From: Methylocystis sp.
GTDB lineage: Bacteria > Pseudomonadota > Alphaproteobacteria > Rhizobiales > Beijerinckiaceae
Reading direction: 5' to 3'
NCBI GenBank assembly: GCA_020252485.1
Contig: JADCCX010000009.1
Location: 1-64,000, forward strand
DNA length: 64,000 nt
The notes under the pieces were generated by a model. The model made no database searches. It was not told the origin of the DNA and saw only the letters and a program-made list of their open reading frames with translations. This document shows, one piece after another, positions 60 to 49,018 of this stretch (position 1 is the stretch's first letter; each line of letters begins with the position of its first letter). Made by a program: the position numbers and the translations under genes.

Positions 60-80
60 GGCGCTTCAAGCGCCTTTTCT
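60..80 (+). terminator. Rho-independent terminator-like hairpin
   Basis: A perfect 7-bp stem (GGCGCTT / AAGCGCC, positions 60-66 and 68-74, one-base gap) is followed by TTTTCT. It would stop rightward transcription of a gene lying left of the window. It sits in the presumed insertion-element end that interrupts the qseC-like gene. A one-base loop is too tight, so the real loop would be formed by opening the innermost pairs. Confidence 0.45.
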
Positions 81-287
81 CTCAACCCGACTGGTACAGT
101 TTAACGCCGCTATCTGGCACAATTTTCCGCCGCTGTTGACAACGATGGTCGGATTGCGCACGCCACGCTCGATGCCGCTCAGATATTGCTGGCTGAAGCC
201 GGTCTTCTCGGCGAACGCCTCCTGCGTCAGGCCCATCTCGAGCCTGATTCGTCGCACGTTCCTTCCGACCAGTCGCCGCATATCCAT
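66..287 (-). pseudogene. qseC: Truncated XRE-type regulator (QseC-like)
   Basis: Codons 1-49 encode a normal Cro/C1-type helix-turn-helix (conserved TQEAFAEKTGFSQQYLSGIE and RGVRNPTIV). Family members continue with a TLYELAQALGV-like fifth helix, but here the frame runs into unrelated sequence (VNSGGKLCQIAALN...) and stops after 73 codons. The switch falls at the insertion-like end at 91-141. The gene is divergent from a small DUF2285 gene, the same layout as qseC/qseM of the M. loti symbiosis island, where QseC is the DNA-binding switch protein controlling qseM. DNA binding may be impaired because the last helix is missing. Confidence 0.7.
91..141. repeat. Repeated terminal motif of a presumed IS21-like insertion end
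   Basis: Two 21-bp direct copies at 91-111 and 114-134 match at 17 of 21 positions (CTGGYACARTTT..CCGCCGCT). The block ends in TTGACA at 136-141, which reads TGTCAA inward on the other strand. Tandem imperfect repeats behind a TGT end are typical of IS21-family termini. The block begins exactly where the qseC-like reading frame loses similarity to its family. The family assignment is an inference, because no transposase is in the window. Confidence 0.5.
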
Positions 288-864: not shown

Positions 865-1200
865 ATGTCGAAACGCGACTGGCGGTCCGCGGCCGCTTAT
901 GCGGACCTCGAAACCGCCCAATTAAGGGACCTTGCTTGGGAGTTCTTGCGACGAAACCCTGCCTATCAGCAGGACTGGATTGAGGCCGGTGTGACCGGCG
1001 ACGACGCGCGCAGCGAAGAAATCGCCGCGCGCTGGGGGTTGCGATTTCCTGAGCGACCCGATGAGCGACGCATCAAATTCGACCCTGTGGCTCCCGGTGC
1101 TGAGCGTCGACACGCTGATCGCATCGGATTTACCGCCATCCTTGTCGCCTCGATCGCCGGTTGCGCCACCGGCTGCGACTTCAGTTCGCTTCGCCAGTGA
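865..1200 (+). CDS. fseA: FseA-like orf1: DUF6499 transcriptional-regulator-like domain
   Basis: The first ~60 codons form the DUF6499 domain (SKRDWRSAAAYADLETAQLR, then WEFLRRNPAYQQDW and EEIAARWGLRF). After RWGLRF the zero-frame continuation has no family resemblance and ends at 1198-1200. The +1 frame takes over with a proper DUF2285 protein that overlaps this ORF by 140 nt. In the M. loti island the excision activator FseA is made from two such ORFs by programmed +1 ribosomal frameshifting, so the unshifted 111-aa product is probably the default and the fused ~252-aa protein the active one. Confidence 0.75.
   Translation: MSKRDWRSAAAYADLETAQLRDLAWEFLRRNPAYQQDWIEAGVTGDDARSEEIAARWGLRFPERPDERRIKFDPVAPGAERRHADRIGFTAILVASIAGCATGCDFSSLRQ
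1042..1051 (+). promoter_or_regulatory. Probable +1 programmed ribosomal frameshift site
   Basis: Zero-frame codons read CGA UUU CCU GAG. Slipping tRNA-Phe from UUU (1045-1047) to UUC (1046-1048) continues as CUG AGC GAC. This joins RWGLRF to LSDPMSDASN and then STLWLPVL, the arrangement expected in single-ORF DUF6499-DUF2285 proteins. The fused protein would be about 252 aa. The exact slip point is inferred from where domain similarity changes frame. Confidence 0.6.
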
Positions 1201-1624
1201 CGGCTGGCACGGTCTGACCAGGACGGCGGCGCGCCAGATCTGGCGGCCGGACAGCCGGGAGCGAGCGCCCATCGCAGCCGTGCTCGTGCCGCTCGACGCG
1301 TTGACGCCGCAGCGGCTGGCGACCGTGCTCCTGTTCTGGGCCCATGCGCTGGGCCGACCCATCAGCGCGCCGCCAGTCCTGTCGCGCGAGCGCCGCCGGC
1401 GTCTCATCCTGGGTCTGCGTGCGCTCGACGGCCGCGCGACCGGCGCAAGCCATCGCACGCTTGCCCAAGGCCTGTTCGGAGCCGACCGCGTGCCGACCGG
1501 CCCGTCCTGGAAGACCCATGACCTCCGCAGCCGCACGCTGCGTCTCCTCGTTGACGCCGGCCGGCTTCGCGACGGCGGATATAGGGACCTCCTGACCGCC
1601 GGTCCGGCCCTTCGCCTTCGATAG
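1061..1624 (+). CDS. fseA: FseA-like orf2: DUF2285 domain protein
   Basis: The ORF is 187 codons from ATG 1061. Open frame extends further upstream, and the informative sequence begins before this ATG when joined to the previous ORF. It holds the DNA-binding-like DUF2285 domain: RTAARQIWRP, VLFWAHALGR, SRERRRRLILGLRALDG, HDLRSRTLRLL and GYRDLL. It shares its C-terminal signature with the QseM-like protein upstream, which fits an activator/antiactivator pair. In the homologous system FseA activates the rdfS promoter, and here the next gene is rdfS-like. Confidence 0.8.
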   Translation: MSDASNSTLWLPVLSVDTLIASDLPPSLSPRSPVAPPAATSVRFASDGWHGLTRTAARQIWRPDSRERAPIAAVLVPLDALTPQRLATVLLFWAHALGRPISAPPVLSRERRRRLILGLRALDGRATGASHRTLAQGLFGADRVPTGPSWKTHDLRSRTLRLLVDAGRLRDGGYRDLLTAGPALRLR

Positions 1625-1684
1625 GGGGCCGCTTTCCCGCTCCCGGTCTTCGAACTCCCTCCACCCCACTGCTCTCCGCCAGCC

Positions 1685-1727
1685 TTGGACCCGACCGCCG
1701 CGCACGGTGCGCGGCGCGACAGTCCAA
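1685..1727. promoter_or_regulatory. 43-bp nested dyad upstream of the rdfS-like gene
   Basis: Two concentric inverted repeats share the centre 1706. The outer arms are TTGGAC/GTCCAA (1685-1690, 1722-1727) and the inner arms CGCCGCGCA/TGCGCGGCG (1696-1704, 1708-1716). The structure ends 14 nt before the ATG of the excisionase-like gene, with a GGAGAG ribosome site between. It could be the operator for the FseA-like activator or an RNA hairpin limiting excisionase expression. The symmetry is seen directly; the role is inferred. Confidence 0.5.
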
Positions 1728-1741
1728 GCCGGAGAGCTCCG

Positions 1742-2026
1742 ATGCCCGATCCCAACACTGGTCTTCCGCCGCGCTATCTGCGCACGCCGGAAGCCGCCCG
1801 CTTTCTTGGCCTCAGTGGCCGCACCCTTGAGAAACACCGCACCTACGGCACCGGGCCGCGCTATTCGAAGATCGGCGGGCGCGTCGTCTATGCGCTCACC
1901 GATCTGCAGGCCTGGGTCGGTCGCGGCGGCAAGACATCGACCAGCGACACGACGGGCGACGCCGTGTTGCCCGCCAAGCGGCATGCCGCGCTCTCGCCGG
2001 CCTATGCCGGCGGCGCACGCCGCTGA
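1742..2026 (+). CDS. rdfS: RdfS/AlpA-like excisionase, helix-turn-helix
   Basis: The protein is 94 aa, starting at ATG 1742 with GGAGAG upstream. The core YLRTPEAARFLGLSGRTLEK, then YGTGPRYSKIGGRVVYALTD and LQAWV, is the winged-helix MerR/AlpA (HTH_17) fold of recombination directionality factors. In ICEMlSym the equivalent, RdfS, drives excision and heads the operon rdfS...traF, transglycosylase, rlxS. The same gene order follows here. It may alternatively be only a transcription factor of the same fold. Confidence 0.75.
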   Translation: MPDPNTGLPPRYLRTPEAARFLGLSGRTLEKHRTYGTGPRYSKIGGRVVYALTDLQAWVGRGGKTSTSDTTGDAVLPAKRHAALSPAYAGGARR

Positions 2027-2036
2027 GCCCGCGCCG

Positions 2037-3092
2037 ATGGCCGCCTCCCGCCCCCGCTTTGCAGCGAGCGAACGCGCAACGCTCGACCCCTTCGAGGCGC
2101 TGTCCGGCGACATCGCGCCGCGCGACCAGCGCGACCTGATGGAGCGGCCGTTCTTCTCCCTGGCCAAAGCCCGGCGCGCCGCCCCGATCCGCTACCGCGC
2201 CGGCGACGTCGAGGTCGAGGTCCACGCCGTCCCTGAGCACGGCATGGCGACCATCTGGGACGCAGACGTGCTGATCTGGGCGGCCTCCCAGATCGTCGAG
2301 GCTCTGGACCGCGGCCTGCCGACCTCGCGCTTCTTCCGCTTCACGCCCTACCAATTGCTCGGCGCCATCGGCCGGGCACGCGGCAAACGCGACTATGTGT
2401 TGCTCAAGGGTGCGCTGGCCAGGCTGCAGTCGACCGTCATCCGCACGACGATCCGCCAGGGCGAGCACTGGCGCCGCCAGCAGTTCAGCTGGATCAACGA
2501 GTGGGAGGAGTTGACGACGCGCGCCGGCCGCGTGGAAGGCATGGAGTTCGTGCTGCCGGATTGGTTCTACCAGGGGGTCATCGATCGCCGCTTCATCCTC
2601 ACCATCGACCGGGAGTATTTCGCGCTGACGGGCGGCATCGAGCGCTGGCTCTATCGCGTCGCGCGCAAGCATGCGGGCCGCCAGCAAGGCGGCTGGCGCT
2701 TCGATCTGCGCCACCTTCACGTCAAGAGCGCGAGCCTGGCGCGTTTCTCCGACTTCGCGCTCGACATCCGCAGGATCGTCGCGCGACAGCCATTGCCAGG
2801 CTATGAGTTGACGCTCGAGATCGACGCCCGCGCCGTCGTCACGCTGCACATGCAGCCTGTGGACAGTGTGTGGATAAGTCCGCCGATCCACGGGAGTTCA
2901 GGCGCATGCCATATCGGGATGTCGGGCGCAGCCGGCACGGGACATCAGGCGCGCCAGGGCGAGCTTTTTCCAATCGGCTCAACGGCCAGTACGCCGTCTA
3001 ACGTCTCTAACCCGGATTCTAACATCTTGGTTGTTGGAGGCGGCGCGCGCTGTGGATCGCGGGCCGGAACGAAAAGCGGGGGCCGGCCATGA
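2037..3092 (+). CDS. RepA-like replication initiator protein
   Basis: Starting at ATG 2037 (ATG 2004 is an alternative overlapping the previous gene) this gives 351 aa. Characteristic stretches are RDQRDLMERPFFSLAKARR, MATIWDADVLIWAASQI, FRFTPYQLLGAIGR, LPDWFYQGVIDRRFILTID and FALTGGIERWLYRVARKHAG, as in the plasmid RPA/RepA initiator family. ICEs use such proteins for replication of the excised circle. The last ~50 residues are low-complexity and contain the TCTAAC repeats noted separately. It overlaps the next gene by ATGA. Confidence 0.85.
   Translation: MAASRPRFAASERATLDPFEALSGDIAPRDQRDLMERPFFSLAKARRAAPIRYRAGDVEVEVHAVPEHGMATIWDADVLIWAASQIVEALDRGLPTSRFFRFTPYQLLGAIGRARGKRDYVLLKGALARLQSTVIRTTIRQGEHWRRQQFSWINEWEELTTRAGRVEGMEFVLPDWFYQGVIDRRFILTIDREYFALTGGIERWLYRVARKHAGRQQGGWRFDLRHLHVKSASLARFSDFALDIRRIVARQPLPGYELTLEIDARAVVTLHMQPVDSVWISPPIHGSSGACHIGMSGAAGTGHQARQGELFPIGSTASTPSNVSNPDSNILVVGGGARCGSRAGTKSGGRP
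2997..3023 (+). repeat. Three TCTAAC repeats at the end of the repA-like gene
   Basis: TCTAAC occurs at 2997-3002, 3006-3011 and 3018-3023, inside the low-complexity tail of the initiator gene. Short iterated motifs near an initiator gene can be initiator-binding iterons, but three 6-mers with unequal spacing is weak evidence. Confidence 0.3.
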
Positions 3093-3553
3093 GCCCGCAC
3101 ACCCGCGTCGAACTCCTCTGGCTCGAGAAGCGCGTCGAGCGCTGGATCCGCTTCGGCCGCATTGCCGAGGAGACGATCCTCGACCGCCGCCGTCGCATCG
3201 TCAGCTTTGCGCCTGACTCCGTGTTTGCCTTCGTGCGCTGGGCCGCGGGCGAGCATGGCACCATCGTCAGCCGCATCGACATCCTGCGCGCGGTCGCGCC
3301 AGGCGAGGCCTGCTCGACGATCCCGTTCGTAACCCCCGGCGGCGAACTCCTACTGCGCCAGTCCGGCTGGCCGAAGGTTGAGGCTGCCCTCACCGCCATC
3401 GACGCCGTCGAGCGGGCCGGCGTCGATCCTGCCGACGCCTGTCCCGATCACTGGCGACACGTGATGAACCGGCTCAGCGCAGGCGAGACGCCGCGCGCCT
3501 ACAGCCTCGACCGCCATCGCGCCTGGCTCAAGCGTCGGAGGGTCGGGGCATGA
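3089..3553 (+). CDS. DUF2840 domain protein
   Basis: This 154-aa protein opens with the DUF2840 signature (LTHVELxWLEKRVE-type start, here TRVELLWLEKRVERWIRFG, then RIVSFAPDSVFAFVRWAAGE). It also has QAWPAVDRVL-like sequence (SGWPKVEAALTAID) and ends WLKRRRVGA. DUF2840 genes occur almost only in rhizobial-type conjugative elements between the initiator and traF, as here. It overlaps both neighbours by 4 nt (ATGA), so it is translationally coupled. No biochemical role is known. Confidence 0.85.
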   Translation: MSPHTRVELLWLEKRVERWIRFGRIAEETILDRRRRIVSFAPDSVFAFVRWAAGEHGTIVSRIDILRAVAPGEACSTIPFVTPGGELLLRQSGWPKVEAALTAIDAVERAGVDPADACPDHWRHVMNRLSAGETPRAYSLDRHRAWLKRRRVGA

Positions 3554-4068
3554 GCCGCACAATCCTTGCGGCGTTCATGGCGGGCGGCGTCGGCCTCATC
3601 GCCGCTCCGGCCGCATTCGATCCGTCCCCGCGTCTTGTCTGGAACGCCTCTGCCAGTGCGCCGCTCGGCCTCTATCGGATCGAGCCTACCGACAGTCTCA
3701 CCATCGGTGATCTTGTGCTGGTCACGCCGACCGGCCCCGTCGCGGCGCTGCTTGCTGAAAGAGGCTATCTGGCGCCCGGCGTGCCGCTCATCAAGCGCCT
3801 TGCAGCGCTTGCCGGACAGACAGTCTGCCGCGCAGGCGACCGCATCCTGATCGACGGCAGGGTTGTCGCAACGGCCCGCGAGATGGATCGCGCTGGCCGT
3901 CCCTTGCCGCGCTGGCAAGGCTGCCAGCGACTCGGTCCCGACCTCGTCTTCCTCCTGAACCAGGATGCGCCGGACAGCCTCGACGGCCGCTATTTCGGGC
4001 CGACGCCCGTCAGCGCCCTGCGGGGCCGCGCCGTCCTGATCCACACATCCATGGAGCGCCGATCATGA
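3550..4068 (+). CDS. traF: TraF, S26-family conjugal pilin peptidase
   Basis: A 172-aa membrane peptidase with an N-terminal hydrophobic segment (residues 4-22). The serine sits in the S26 motif SAPLGLY (Ser36) and the lysine general base in PLIKRLAAL (Lys82). TraF of RP4 cyclises the TrbC pilin, and a TrbC gene is present at 38,437. The start codon overlaps the DUF2840 stop, and the end overlaps the transglycosylase start, consistent with a single transfer operon. Confidence 0.92.
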   Translation: MSRTILAAFMAGGVGLIAAPAAFDPSPRLVWNASASAPLGLYRIEPTDSLTIGDLVLVTPTGPVAALLAERGYLAPGVPLIKRLAALAGQTVCRAGDRILIDGRVVATAREMDRAGRPLPRWQGCQRLGPDLVFLLNQDAPDSLDGRYFGPTPVSALRGRAVLIHTSMERRS

Positions 4069-4892
4069 CCGACACCGCATCGCCGAGCGCGCGGCGCAAG
4101 CATCTTCCATCCCGGGTCATCTTCCTCGCAGCCACGCTGGCTCTGCTCGCGCTCGCTGCGCCGGCGCACGCCGGGTCTCGTGATCCCTATGGCCGCTATA
4201 TCGCCGAAGCCGCCCAGCGCTTCGCCATGCCAGAGCGCTGGATCCGCGAGGTGATGCGCGTCGAAAGCGCCGGTCGGCCGCGCGCCGTCTCGCATGCCGG
4301 AGCCATGGGCCTGATGCAGATCATGCCTGGCACCTGGGCAGAGTTGCGCCGCGCTCACGGTCTCGGCGCCGACCCGTTCAGGCCGCGCGACAATATCCTC
4401 GCGGGCGCCGCCTATCTGCGCCAGATGTACGACCGCTTCCGCTCGGTGCACCTCATGCTCGCCGCCTACAATGCCGGCCCAGGGCGCACGGATCAGCATG
4501 TCCGTGCCGGCCGACGGCTCCCGGCGGAAACGCGCGCTTACATCGCCGTGCTCGTCCCGGCGCTCAACGACACGCCATCGAGTGAGACTGCACCGATCGT
4601 GAAGCTGGCCCAGGCCGACCCGGCAACAGGCCCGCTGTTCGCGCCGGTGACGCCGCCAAGCGGTCTCTCGGATGCGGCACCAACGCCGTCCGAACGCCTG
4701 TCGCCTGATGAGAGCCGGCTGCTGACGCTGCATCGCCGTCTCGATGCAGAGGCCCGCCGAGCGCCTGCGGCACCATTGGATCCGCGCGGTCGGTCGCCTG
4801 CCATAGCGGGGAATGCAGTCACCGAGCCTGCGACGCCGTCGCCGGGGCGCGTGCTGTTTGCTGTGTCGCGACCTGCGGGATCGACGCCATGA
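4065..4892 (+). CDS. Lytic transglycosylase of the conjugation system
   Basis: The 275-aa precursor has a signal peptide (hydrophobic residues 19-36, cleavage near AHA-GSRDPYGRYI). An SLT domain follows: the catalytic glutamate is in VMRVESAGRP (Glu67), then GAMGLMQIMPGTW and LMLAAYNAGPG. It would open peptidoglycan for the transfer apparatus and corresponds to Msi107 of ICEMlSym. The C-terminal 120 residues are a proline-rich linker without a recognised domain. Confidence 0.92.
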   Translation: MTDTASPSARRKHLPSRVIFLAATLALLALAAPAHAGSRDPYGRYIAEAAQRFAMPERWIREVMRVESAGRPRAVSHAGAMGLMQIMPGTWAELRRAHGLGADPFRPRDNILAGAAYLRQMYDRFRSVHLMLAAYNAGPGRTDQHVRAGRRLPAETRAYIAVLVPALNDTPSSETAPIVKLAQADPATGPLFAPVTPPSGLSDAAPTPSERLSPDESRLLTLHRRLDAEARRAPAAPLDPRGRSPAIAGNAVTEPATPSPGRVLFAVSRPAGSTP

Positions 4893-5174
4893 ACCTGCAG
4901 GCCTCGATACATGGCGCTGTGCCGCCACCGCTCAGGCGTGACCCGTTCTCGGAAACAATGGTCTTAGAGCTTGATGGTCACATGCGTGGGTCAGCGTTCG
5001 TGCTGAGGGGAGACGTCCACGGATTGCGAGATAAAAGCAGCGACGGCGCTTGGTCGTATGGTGTTGAGAACCATAGCGTTTTCGGTCCATTTGCCGCAGG
5101 CATGCGCGGCGCTTTCCGCCGAAAGCGCAATGACATCAATGCACAAAGCGCCATCGCGCTCGGGTTCCCGCGCC
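4893..5174. other. Intergenic region upstream of relaxase, candidate oriT
   Basis: This is the only real gap in the otherwise overlapping transfer operon, and it lies immediately before the relaxase gene, where oriT is often found. It holds a perfect hairpin (8-bp arms GCGCTTTC/GAAAGCGC, 4-base loop, 5109-5128) and a second one (AGCGC/GCGCT, 5147-5160). An open frame across it has no family resemblance and was not called. The nic site cannot be placed from sequence alone. Confidence 0.4.
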
Positions 5175-6944
5175 ATGACTGAGCGCGACGCCGACGTGAC
5201 GATCCGGCCTGGCCGCATCCGCGACAAGGGCCCTGGGGCCAAGCGCGCGCAAAGCCTCGTCGGTCAGGTCATGCGTGCTGCACGTCAGGCGGGTCACACC
5301 GGACGCGGCTTCGGCAAGGCGAGCGTCGGCCGCTCGCGATCGCGTTTCGGGCGCGGCCGTACGGCGACGGTCATCGCCTCGTTGCGCTCGCCCTCGCGAC
5401 GCGTCGTCATCAAGGCCCGCGTCGTCCGCCACCACGGTGCGAAATTCCGCGCCGCGTCTCTCGCCACGCACGTCGCTTATCTCAAGCGCGACGGGGTGAC
5501 CCGGGATGGAGGCGAGGCGCGGCTCTTCAATGAGGTCGGCGACGAGGCCGATGGCCGCGCCTTCGCCGAGCGTTGTGGCCAGGAAGGACCAAACGCCGAC
5601 AGGCATCATTTCCGCTTCATCGTCAGCCCGGAGGACGCGGACCGCATGGCCGACCTCAGGGGCTTCACCCGCGACGTGATGAGCCAGGCCGAGCGCGACC
5701 TTGGCACGAAGCTCGATTGGGTCGCCGTCGATCACTGGAACACCGACAACCCGCACGTCCATGTGCTGGTGCGTGGCGTGGCCGACGATGGCCGCGATCT
5801 CGTCATCGCCCGCGACTACATCGCCCAGGGCTTCCGCGCCCGCGCGGAGGGGCTGGTCGATCTCGAGCTTGGCCCGCGATCAGAGCAGGAGATCCGAACG
5901 GGTTTGGAGAAAGACGTCGCTGCCGAGCGCTGGACTGCCCTGGACCGCGCACTTCAGGCGGCAAGCGATGACGGTGGCGGCATCCTCGACCTGCGACCGC
6001 CGCGCGGTGGGTCGGACACCGACCTGCGTCGCCTGATGGTCGGCCGCGCCCAGACGCTCGAACGGCTCGGTCTTGCTGAAAAGCTTGGGCCGGCGTCCTG
6101 GAGCCTCAAGCCCGGGGCCGAGGCGACGCTGCGCGACCTCGGCCTGCGTGGCGACATCATCAAGACCATGCATCGCGCCATGGCCGACCTCAACGCCGAG
6201 CGTGCGCCAGCCGACTTCGCCATCCACGGCGAATGGCCAGAGTCGGTGATCGGCCGGCTGGTGGCGCGCGGCCTCGACGATGAACTCAAGGGCACGGCCT
6301 TCGCCGTGATCGACGGCGTGGACGGCCGCGTCCACCATATCCGTTTCGTGAGCTTCGAAGCGACGACCGACGTCCCGCCCGGCGGCATTGTCGAACTGCG
6401 CCGATACACGGACGCGGACGGCCGCGAGCGCACCGCGCTCGCCCCACGCTCGGACCTGTCGATCGAGGCGCAGGTGTCGGCCACCGGCGCGACCTGGCTC
6501 GACCGTCGCCTCGTCGAGCGCGACAAGATGCCGGTGGCGGGGGCCGGCTTCGGAGCAGAGGTGGCCGCCGCGCTCACGCGCCGCGGCGAGCATCTCCTCG
6601 CCGAAGGCCTCGCGCGGCGGCAGGGTCAGCGCATCGTGTTTGCCGCCGACCTGATCGGCACGCTGCGCGAGCGCGAACTCGCCAGCATAGGCGCGAGACT
6701 CTCGGCAGAGATCGGTCGCAGCTACCGCGCGGTGACTGACGGTGATCCGGTCAACGGCGTCTACGCCCGCCGCGTCGACCTCGCCTCCGGCCGCTTCGCG
6801 ATGCTCGATGACGGTCTTGGTTTTCAGCTCGTCCCGTGGAAGCCGGCGCTCGACGCGCGCCTCGGCGACAAGATCTCCGGCGTCATGCTGCCAGGCGGCG
6901 GCGTCGAGTGGAGCCTTGGCCGAAAACGAAGCCCCAGCATCTGA
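5175..6944 (+). CDS. rlxS: RlxS-type relaxase (VirD2-like, DUF3363)
   Basis: The start at ATG 5175 gives 589 aa beginning MTERDADVTIRPGRIRD, the usual RlxS N-terminus; the frame is open further upstream but without family resemblance. The metal-binding three-histidine motif is HWNTDNPHVH near residue 186, preceded by DRHHFRFIVSPEDA. The C-terminal half is DUF3363. The protein nicks oriT, stays covalently bound to the DNA end and leads it to the coupling protein encoded next. This is the MOB-P type relaxase of ICEMlSym-like elements. Confidence 0.93.
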   Translation: MTERDADVTIRPGRIRDKGPGAKRAQSLVGQVMRAARQAGHTGRGFGKASVGRSRSRFGRGRTATVIASLRSPSRRVVIKARVVRHHGAKFRAASLATHVAYLKRDGVTRDGGEARLFNEVGDEADGRAFAERCGQEGPNADRHHFRFIVSPEDADRMADLRGFTRDVMSQAERDLGTKLDWVAVDHWNTDNPHVHVLVRGVADDGRDLVIARDYIAQGFRARAEGLVDLELGPRSEQEIRTGLEKDVAAERWTALDRALQAASDDGGGILDLRPPRGGSDTDLRRLMVGRAQTLERLGLAEKLGPASWSLKPGAEATLRDLGLRGDIIKTMHRAMADLNAERAPADFAIHGEWPESVIGRLVARGLDDELKGTAFAVIDGVDGRVHHIRFVSFEATTDVPPGGIVELRRYTDADGRERTALAPRSDLSIEAQVSATGATWLDRRLVERDKMPVAGAGFGAEVAAALTRRGEHLLAEGLARRQGQRIVFAADLIGTLRERELASIGARLSAEIGRSYRAVTDGDPVNGVYARRVDLASGRFAMLDDGLGFQLVPWKPALDARLGDKISGVMLPGGGVEWSLGRKRSPSI

Positions 6945-7035: not shown

Positions 7036-9024
7036 ATGTCAACCGGTATGTCCGCTACCAAGATCCTCTGGGGTCAACTCATAATCGTCTTGCTCATTGT
7101 GCTCGCCGCGGTGTGGGGGGCAACGCAGTGGGTCGCGTGGCGTTTGGGGTTCCAGGCTCAACTCGGCCCGCCGATGGACGTGATCTGGGGCGTGCCGGTT
7201 TATCCGCCGCCGGCCTTTTTCCTGTGGTGGTACTGGTACGACGCCTACGCGCCGTACATCTTCTACGAAGGCGCGCTCATCGCAGGCTCCGGCGGGTTCG
7301 CCGCGATCGGCATCGCCATCGGCATGTCGGTCTGGCGGGCGCGGGAAGCACAAGACGTGACGACCTATGGCTCGGCGCGATGGGCCAACGAGGACGAGGT
7401 GGTCCGCGCCGGGCTGCTGGCGCCCGATGGCGTGGTGCTCGGCCGGTTCGAACGGCGCTATCTGCGTCATGACGGGCCTGAGCATGTGCTCTGCTTCGCG
7501 CCGACGCGCTCCGGCAAGGGCGTTGGCCTTGTCGTGCCGACGCTGCTCACCTGGCCGGGCAGCGCGATCATCCACGACATCAAGGGCGAGAATTGGCAGC
7601 TGACCGCTGGCTGGCGCGCGCGCTTCGGTCGCGTGCTGCTGTTTGATCCGACAAATCCGGCAAGTGCGGCCTACAACCCGCTGCTCGAGGTGCGTCGCGG
7701 CCCCAGCGAGGTGCGCGACGTCCAGAACATTGCCGACATCCTGGTCGATCCCGAAGGCGCGCTGGAGCGCCGCAACCATTGGGAGAAGACCAGCCATTCG
7801 CTGCTCGTCGGTGCGATCCTGCATGTCCTATACGCCGAAGCCGACAAGACGCTCGCTGGCGTTGCCAATTTCCTGTCGGACCCGCGCCGGCCGATCGAGG
7901 CGACGCTCGCCGCCATGATGGCGACGCCGCATCTCGGCAAAGTGCCGCACTCTGTCGTGGCGAGCGCGGCGCGCGAGCTTCTCAACAAATCCGACAATGA
8001 GCGCTCCGGCGTTCTTTCGACCGCCATGAGCTTTCTCGGCCTCTACCGCGATCCCGTCGCGGCGCAGGTGACGAGCCGCTGCGACTGGCGCATCGCCGAT
8101 CTGGTCGAGGCCCGCGCGCCGGTGTCACTCTACCTCGTCGTTCCGCCATCGGACATCGTGCGCACGAAGCCCCTGGTGCGCCTCGTTCTCAATCAGATCG
8201 GCCGGCGGCTGACCGAGACACTGGAGAACGACCGCCGCCACCATCGCCTGCTGCTGATGCTCGACGAGTTCCCCGCGCTCGGCCGGCTCGACTTCTTCGA
8301 GACTCAGCTCGCCTTCATGGCGGGCTACGGCATCCGCTCCTTCCTGATCGCCCAGTCGCTGAACCAGATCGAGCGCGCCTACGGGCCGAACAACGCCATC
8401 CTCGACAACTGCCATGTCCGCGTGGCCTTCGCCACCAATGACGAACGCACCGCCAAGCGCGTATCCGACGCGCTCGGCACCGCGACCGAGATGCGGGCGA
8501 TGAAGAATTACGCCGGCCACCGGCTCTCGCCCTGGCTCGGGCATCTGATGGTCAGCCGGCAGGAAACAGCGCGCCCGCTTTTGACGCCCGGCGAAATCAT
8601 GCAGCTGCCGGCCTCGGACGAGATCGTGCTCGTCTCTGGCAGGCCGCCGTTGCGCGCGCAGAAGGCGCGCTACTACGAGGATGCGCAGCTGAAGGCGCGG
8701 GTGCTGGCGCCGCCGATACCGGACAACTCAGCCCGCATGGCGCCGGCGACCGACGACTGGAGTGCCTTGCCGGTGATCGCCCCGCCCAAGCCCACGAAGG
8801 CCGCACGTGGATCCGAAGACGACGACGGCGGCATTCGCCGCGAGCCCGCCTTGCCAGAGCACGAGCAGGTCGCGCCCGAGCCTGGCCCGCCGCCCGACAA
8901 GGAGTTCGCCTTTCTCGATGAGATCGCCGATGATGACGCGGCGCGTGCCCGAGCGATGACCGCCCGCATGCGCGGCGTTGCCCGGCAGGCCGCGCTGGAC
9001 CCCAACGACGGCATCGCCCTATGA
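7036..9024 (+). CDS. traG: Type IV coupling protein TraG/VirD4
   Basis: A 662-aa membrane ATPase with N-terminal membrane segments (residues ~7-30 and ~68-95). The Walker A motif is in FAPTRSGKGVGLVVPTLL (about residue 153-170), Walker B in LLLMLDEFPALGRLD, and FLIAQSLNQIERAYG follows. It links the relaxosome to the Trb channel. The acidic, proline-rich C-terminus after residue ~580 is variable in the family. It lies 91 nt after the relaxase and just before a CopG-type gene. Confidence 0.95.
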   Translation: MSTGMSATKILWGQLIIVLLIVLAAVWGATQWVAWRLGFQAQLGPPMDVIWGVPVYPPPAFFLWWYWYDAYAPYIFYEGALIAGSGGFAAIGIAIGMSVWRAREAQDVTTYGSARWANEDEVVRAGLLAPDGVVLGRFERRYLRHDGPEHVLCFAPTRSGKGVGLVVPTLLTWPGSAIIHDIKGENWQLTAGWRARFGRVLLFDPTNPASAAYNPLLEVRRGPSEVRDVQNIADILVDPEGALERRNHWEKTSHSLLVGAILHVLYAEADKTLAGVANFLSDPRRPIEATLAAMMATPHLGKVPHSVVASAARELLNKSDNERSGVLSTAMSFLGLYRDPVAAQVTSRCDWRIADLVEARAPVSLYLVVPPSDIVRTKPLVRLVLNQIGRRLTETLENDRRHHRLLLMLDEFPALGRLDFFETQLAFMAGYGIRSFLIAQSLNQIERAYGPNNAILDNCHVRVAFATNDERTAKRVSDALGTATEMRAMKNYAGHRLSPWLGHLMVSRQETARPLLTPGEIMQLPASDEIVLVSGRPPLRAQKARYYEDAQLKARVLAPPIPDNSARMAPATDDWSALPVIAPPKPTKAARGSEDDDGGIRREPALPEHEQVAPEPGPPPDKEFAFLDEIADDDAARARAMTARMRGVARQAALDPNDGIAL

Positions 9025-48938: not shown

Positions 48939-49018
<80 letters not shown>

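What the first reader, a model, noticed from the sequence alone, without database searches (positions are those of the whole stretch)
865..1624. FseA-like excision activator that probably needs programmed +1 frameshifting
Two ORFs overlap by 140 nt in a 0/+1 arrangement. The first carries only the DUF6499 domain, the second only DUF2285. Family resemblance switches frame at CGA UUU CCU GAG (1042-1053), where a Phe-tRNA can slip from UUU to UUC. ICEMlSym(R7A) makes FseA in this way. The small QseM-like gene upstream and the rdfS-like gene downstream complete the circuit. The candidate slip codon is seen here; the claim that it is used is inference.
Basis: partly seen in the sequence, partly recalled or inferred. 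Interest (0 to 1): 0.75.

Follow-up and report, generated by a model that had tools for sequence, protein, structure and literature searches.

The report
Frameshifted FseA-type conjugation activator gene
This is a typical two-frame gene for FseA, a switch protein that starts excision and transfer of mobile DNA and that the ribosome can only make in full by slipping forward one base; the mechanism is already published, so this is an ordinary new example with unusually clear comparative support.

Summary
ORF1 (865-1200) carries DUF6499 (PF20109) and ORF2 (1061-1624) carries DUF2285 (PF10074), in frames 0 and +1, overlapping by 140 nt. The slip site is UGG GGG UUG CGA UUU CCU (1033-1050). Among 82 homologous loci that could be classified, 71 need the same +1 step, and all 71 have UUU at the slip codon; the next base is C in 69 and U in 2. 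In 11 single-frame homologues UUU is kept in only 3, and those with the same core keep the WGLxxxxDP spacing of the predicted junction WGLRFLSDP. This places a one-base skip right after UUU. The start codon of ORF2 is not conserved. Assembly error, pseudogene and separate initiation are therefore unlikely. The neighbours (qseC-like, qseM-like, rdfS-like, repA-like, traF-like, rlxS, traG, trb) form the known ICEMlSym(R7A)-type transfer module. The frameshift is already published for thousands of proteobacterial FseA genes (PMC10359603, PMC5009743). Verdict: a new, sequence-divergent member of a known kind. Two details differ from R7A: no LuxI hit was found, and no FseA box was recognised here, although many relatives show one. 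Frameshifting itself remains inferred for this locus.

The parts
66..287 (-). QseC-like short HTH_3 regulator, divergent from the qseM-like gene
   Evidence: PF01381 E 6.2e-13. The QseC label is inferred from position next to qseM, as described for R7A (PMC8627217).
462..740 (+). QseM-like antiactivator: lone DUF2285 domain, net charge -3
   Evidence: PF10074 E 3.5e-9; charge -3 against +10 for the FseA DUF2285. 39 of 60 loci, this window included, have such an ORF just upstream of fseA.
865..1200 (+). fseA ORF1 (0 frame): DUF6499 domain with AWEFLRRN helix, then an unconserved 0-frame tail after the slip
   Evidence: PF20109 E 1.8e-19; motif visible in the translation
1033..1050 (+). +1 frameshift cassette UGG GGG UUG CGA UUU CCU: SD-like UGGGGG at 1033-1038, minor codons GGG, UUG and CGA, slip codon UUU at 1045-1047
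   Evidence: Sequence. UGG 60/60, UUU 60/60, GGG 48/60, UUG 36/56 Leu, CGA 38/49 Arg, against backgrounds of 23% (UUU of Phe), 12% (GGG of Gly), 9% (UUG of Leu) and 9% (CGA of Arg).
1061..1624 (+). fseA ORF2 (+1 frame): middle region plus DUF2285 DNA-binding domain; the ATG at 1061 is probably not used
   Evidence: PF10074 E 5.1e-25. An ATG within 12 codons after the slip occurs in only 1 of 60 loci, this one.
1742..2026 (+). rdfS-like HTH recombination directionality factor gene
   Evidence: PF12728 E 1.2e-7. Same gene found downstream of fseA in 49 of 60 loci by its TLEKxR motif.
2037..3092 (+). replication-initiator-A-like gene
   Evidence: PF10134 E 2.7e-82
3089..6944 (+). DUF2840 gene, TraF-like S26 peptidase, SLT transglycosylase, RlxS-type relaxase (DUF3363)
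   Evidence: Pfam; NCBIfam RlxS 574.6 bits, below its 850 cut-off
7036..9024 (+). traG coupling protein of the same element
   Evidence: NCBIfam NF010450 1198 bits; PF02534

Best explanation
The two ORFs are one gene, fseA, of an ICEMlSym(R7A)-type integrative and conjugative element. Most ribosomes read ORF1 and make an inactive DUF6499 fragment. At CGA UUU CCU a minority slip: the tRNA-Phe in the P site moves one base forward from UUU to UUC while the A site is slow to fill. The SD-like UGGGGG and the minor codons UUG and CGA just upstream probably help. The shifted ribosomes add Leu-Ser-Asp-Pro and so on, and finish a 252-aa DUF6499-DUF2285 activator. That protein should turn on rdfS and the transfer operon directly downstream, while the QseM-like protein encoded just upstream binds the DUF6499 helix and blocks it. 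Shown here: domains, frames, conserved slip site, junction spacing and gene order. Inferred: that slipping happens here, its efficiency, the DNA target, and the blocking by QseM (known in R7A from the papers).
For: Domains in two frames. Slip codon UUU in 71/71 two-frame homologues against 3/11 single-frame ones (Fisher p 4.6e-9, not corrected for relatedness). Next base is C in 69 and U in 2, so the slipped tRNA-Phe can always re-pair. Single-frame homologues read WGLRFPLDP, WGLRFIVDP, WGLIFMCDP and WGLRLLEDP, the same spacing as the predicted WGLRFLSDP. The start of ORF2 is not conserved. Minor codons GGG, UUG and CGA are kept before the slip. A profile of the fused proteins matches RovC, PDB 6xz5 (E 1.1e-17). 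W6, the WE-LRRN helix, D188 and Y239 of the window protein lie in conserved columns. A Sphingopyxis plasmid has the same DUF2285 / DUF6499 / DUF2285 / HTH / repA order, and a Methylocystis plasmid the same order on to traG, with the DUF6499 part left unannotated. Published mechanism in R7A and 4709 homologues, about 61% in two frames (PMC10359603; PMC5009743).
Against: No expression, proteomic or reporter data for this locus. The window protein is divergent (26-37% identity to the aligned relatives, end branch 1.22). Its A-site codon CCU was the only one among 60 loci, where CCC, CGC and CGU are usual. The inverted repeat found before rdfS in many relatives could not be recognised here. A decayed but still open gene is therefore not fully excluded.
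Confidence: 0.93

Rival explanations
1. Sequencing or assembly error: one base was added or lost and the real gene is a single ORF.
For: The genome is a draft in 176 contigs, and one relative (L024) is indeed a single frame.
Against: 59 of 60 loci, from many independent genomes, show the same +1 step at the same UUU, and so do two finished plasmids read as L142 and L143.
Confidence: 0.01
2. Two separate proteins: DUF6499 and DUF2285 are translated independently, ORF2 starting at ATG 1061 by coupling or reinitiation.
For: An ATG lies 4 codons after the slip in the +1 frame, and the list of ORFs starts ORF2 there.
Against: No other of 60 loci has an ATG within 12 codons of the slip; the first ATG is often deep inside ORF2. 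Single-ORF fusions exist with the same junction spacing. In R7A contacts between the two domains of one chain are needed for activation (PMC10359603).
Confidence: 0.03
3. Transcriptional slippage at the GGGGG run, or a shift upstream of UUU, rather than ribosomal slippage at UUU.
For: A G5 run lies at 1034-1038, and a one-base loss there would also reach the +1 frame.
Against: It would give WGCDF instead of WGLRF, while single-frame homologues keep WGLxF or WGLRL. UUU is invariant; the Gly third base varies (12 of 60 are not GGG).
Confidence: 0.02
4. A relic: a formerly frameshifted fseA on a decaying element that no longer works.
For: Long branch (1.22) in the tree and no recognisable FseA box.
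Against: Both frames are open to the usual lengths, the conserved residues are kept, the slip cassette is intact, and the downstream transfer genes and the trb genes tested are intact and large.
Confidence: 0.06

Closest known systems
FseA (msi172-msi171) of ICEMlSym(R7A), Mesorhizobium japonicum
   Same: DUF6499 in one ORF, DUF2285 in the +1 ORF; Trp as 4th codon before slip codon UUU; WGL encoded with UGGGGG; same downstream order rdfS ... traF ... rlxS (PMC10359603, PMC5009743, PMC11963761).
   Different: Here the qseM-like gene sits directly upstream and rdfS directly downstream. No LuxI hit in the genome and one LuxR-type hit on another contig. CCU in the A site.
QseM/QseC antiactivation pair of ICEMlSym(R7A)
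   Same: Lone DUF2285 protein with negative net charge and a small HTH gene next to it.
   Different: Function not tested; in the relatives sampled here the qseM-like gene is commonly joined to fseA.
RovC (PDB 6xz5)
   Same: Sequence profile of the fused proteins matches it (E 1.1e-17).
   Different: RovC is a distantly related regulator linked to type VI secretion (PMC10359603, Pfam name), not to conjugation.
prfB (RF2) +1 frameshift
   Same: +1 slippage helped by an SD-like sequence upstream (from general knowledge, not tested here).
   Different: No stop codon at the slip site here; the 0-frame stop lies 50 codons later, and one more codon separates the SD-like run from the slip codon.

Membership tests
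FseA-type frameshifted excision activator | N-terminal DUF6499 with AWEFLRRN-like helix | tested here: met
   PF20109 E 1.8e-19; AWEFLRRN present
FseA-type frameshifted excision activator | C-terminal DUF2285 with positive charge | tested here: met
   PF10074 E 5.1e-25; net charge +10
FseA-type frameshifted excision activator | Conserved +1 slip site: Trp-Gly, with Trp as 4th codon before UUU | tested here: met
   UGG GGG UUG CGA UUU C at 1033-1048; UUU in 71/71 two-frame homologues
FseA-type frameshifted excision activator | Frameshifting occurs and makes one polypeptide | not testable with these tools
   Needs a reporter or mass spectrometry.
FseA-type frameshifted excision activator | FseA box (inverted hexamers 15-16 bp apart) upstream of rdfS | tested here: inconclusive
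   Many relatives show it (for example TGCGAA-N15-TTCGCA). In the window the aligned arms do not match, and the only 6/6 pair (1605-1631) lies elsewhere and may be chance.
FseA-type frameshifted excision activator | rdfS-traF-rlxS transfer operon nearby | tested here: met
   Gene order present; control of it by FseA not tested
QseM antiactivator | Lone DUF2285 with negative charge, no DUF6499 | tested here: met
   462-740, net charge -3; median for such upstream ORFs -2 against +10 for FseA
TraR/TraI quorum control of fseA | luxI/luxR-type genes on the element | tested here: inconclusive
   No PF00765 hit, but the control genomes did not ring either; one PF03472 hit, on contig C24

The most novel reading that the evidence does not exclude
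A compact version of the circuit without quorum sensing: a qseC/qseM switch joined directly to a frameshifted fseA and its rdfS target, so that slippage rate and QseM level alone set how often the element excises. Joint, element-specific changes in both arms of the FseA box would keep co-resident elements apart.
Probability: 0.3. Interest if true: 0.4.

Novelty: new member of a known kind. Interest (0 to 1): 0.25.

Why it matters
It shows that an FseA only 26-37% identical to its relatives still keeps the exact slip cassette, so frameshifting is under strong selection and is not a quirk of one element. The loss of the UUU constraint in single-frame homologues is a natural control. It also warns that annotation pipelines split or drop this activator.

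Tried and rejected
Assembly error, separate initiation and transcriptional slippage were each tested against homologues and rejected. The genome-contig scan with the fused protein found only one distant locus, so HMM searches of whole genomes were used instead. A search for an FseA box in the window gave nothing convincing. PADLOC hits on cargo ATPases and an ABC1-type kinase look like superfamily cross-hits. One alignment row (L062) was misread by an earlier in-frame UUUC and should be ignored in alignment A1. The original 2015 PNAS paper on R7A was not held; its content is taken from later papers.

Full report
Observation. The window holds ORF1 at 865-1200 and ORF2 at 1061-1624, one base apart in frame and overlapping by 140 nt. 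ORF1 contains only the DUF6499 domain (PF20109, E 1.8e-19) and ORF2 only the DUF2285 domain (PF10074, E 5.1e-25). The slip sequence CGA UUU CCU GAG is at 1042-1053. Reading UUUC as one Phe gives a continuous 252-aa protein with the junction WGLRFLSDP.

Is it real? PF20109 was searched in whole genomes of the same taxonomic family and order. In 60 loci, this window included, that carry the WG motif, codon 1 of the cassette is UGG in 60/60 and codon 5 is UUU in 60/60. The next base is C in 58 and U in 2, and 59 need a +1 step to reach the DUF2285 frame. With a sample of more distant genomes and two plasmid records, 71 two-frame genes could be classified and all have UUU; 11 single-frame genes have UUU in only 3 (Fisher p 4.6e-9, not corrected for shared ancestry). 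Background use of UUU for Phe in the same genes is 23%. GGG, UUG and CGA, all minor codons in these genes (12%, 9%, 9%), are also favoured just before the slip: 48/60, 36/56 and 38/49. Selection therefore appears to act on the bases and not only on the amino acids.

Where is the shift? Single-frame homologues read WGLRFPLDP (L024, same locus as L122), WGLRFIVDP (L123), WGLIFMCDP (L132) and WGLRLLEDP (L115, L117, L119, L124). The spacing from WGL to DP equals that of the predicted fusion. A one-base skip directly after the fifth codon is thus the simplest way to reach the same protein. A shift in the G run would change the residues between. A tree of 81 fused proteins needs 3 gains or losses of the two-frame state, far fewer than in shuffles, and L024 is a single-frame gene nested inside a two-frame clade, which suggests a recent loss of frameshifting.

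Rivals. The ATG at 1061 is not a conserved start: none of the other 59 loci has an ATG within 12 codons of the slip. The 0-frame tail after the slip varies from 2 to 72 codons in most loci and is longer in a few, so the overlap has no conserved length or product. An assembly error cannot explain the same arrangement in 71 genes.

Surroundings. Upstream lies a lone DUF2285 gene (462-740) with negative net charge and, divergent from it, a small HTH gene (66-287). Downstream lie an rdfS-like HTH gene, a repA-like gene, DUF2840, an S26 peptidase, a transglycosylase, an RlxS-type relaxase, traG and, further on, trb genes. In 39 of 60 loci a lone DUF2285 ORF lies just upstream of fseA, and in 49 an rdfS-like gene was found downstream. 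The element seems to end at a tRNA-Arg gene (48939-49015), after which housekeeping genes follow. This is the R7A-type transfer module described in PMC10359603, PMC8627217 and PMC11963761.

Mechanism. By analogy with R7A, low-frequency +1 slippage of tRNA-Phe from UUU to UUC makes full FseA, which activates rdfS and the transfer genes, and QseM blocks FseA by binding its DUF6499 helix. Those functions were measured in R7A (PMC10359603) and are inferred here. The FseA box seen upstream of rdfS in many relatives, as inverted hexamers 15-16 bp apart whose two arms change together, was not recognised in the window. No LuxI hit was found, but that search had no positive control.

Verdict. The thing is a divergent but typical member of a published family in which about 61% of 4709 homologues have this frameshift. 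Interest is therefore modest.

Noticed in passing
window 10467-36715: Cargo of the conjugative element is largely sulfur metabolism: sulfite/nitrite reductase, two PAPS reductase domain proteins, an EF-Tu-like GTPase of CysN type, solute-binding protein and permease, NlpA/NIL-type ABC transporter, Cys/Met enzyme, sulphur transport protein, flavocytochrome c sulfide dehydrogenase.
   Followed up: partly
window 48939-49015 and own genome contig C83:3189-4594 (L154, L151): The element seems to end at the 3' end of tRNA-Arg(CCG). A 49-bp, 92% copy of that tRNA end lies on contig C83 about 0.9 kb before a tyrosine integrase, a candidate for the other end of the element.
   Followed up: partly
loci L007-L065 upstream of rdfS: The two arms of the FseA-box-like inverted repeat change together between elements (TGCGAA/TTCGCA, TGGGAA/TTCCCA, TGTCGA/TCGACA, GCCGGA/TCCGGC, GTGCGA/TCGCAC), suggesting element-specific DNA recognition.
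   Followed up: partly
L024 / L122 (G063:C1, about 1471600): A single-frame fseA nested inside a frameshifting clade, still with UUU at the old slip codon: an apparent recent loss of frameshifting.
   Followed up: partly
window 1684-1728: A GC-rich 22-nt imperfect inverted repeat lies between fseA and rdfS; relatives have a similar CCGCCGC...GCGGC stem just before the rdfS start.
   Followed up: no
own genome C111:3279-3443 (L002): A DUF2285 fragment (profile positions 53-107) near the end of a 3.6-kb contig, probably another FseA/QseM-type gene remnant.
   Followed up: no
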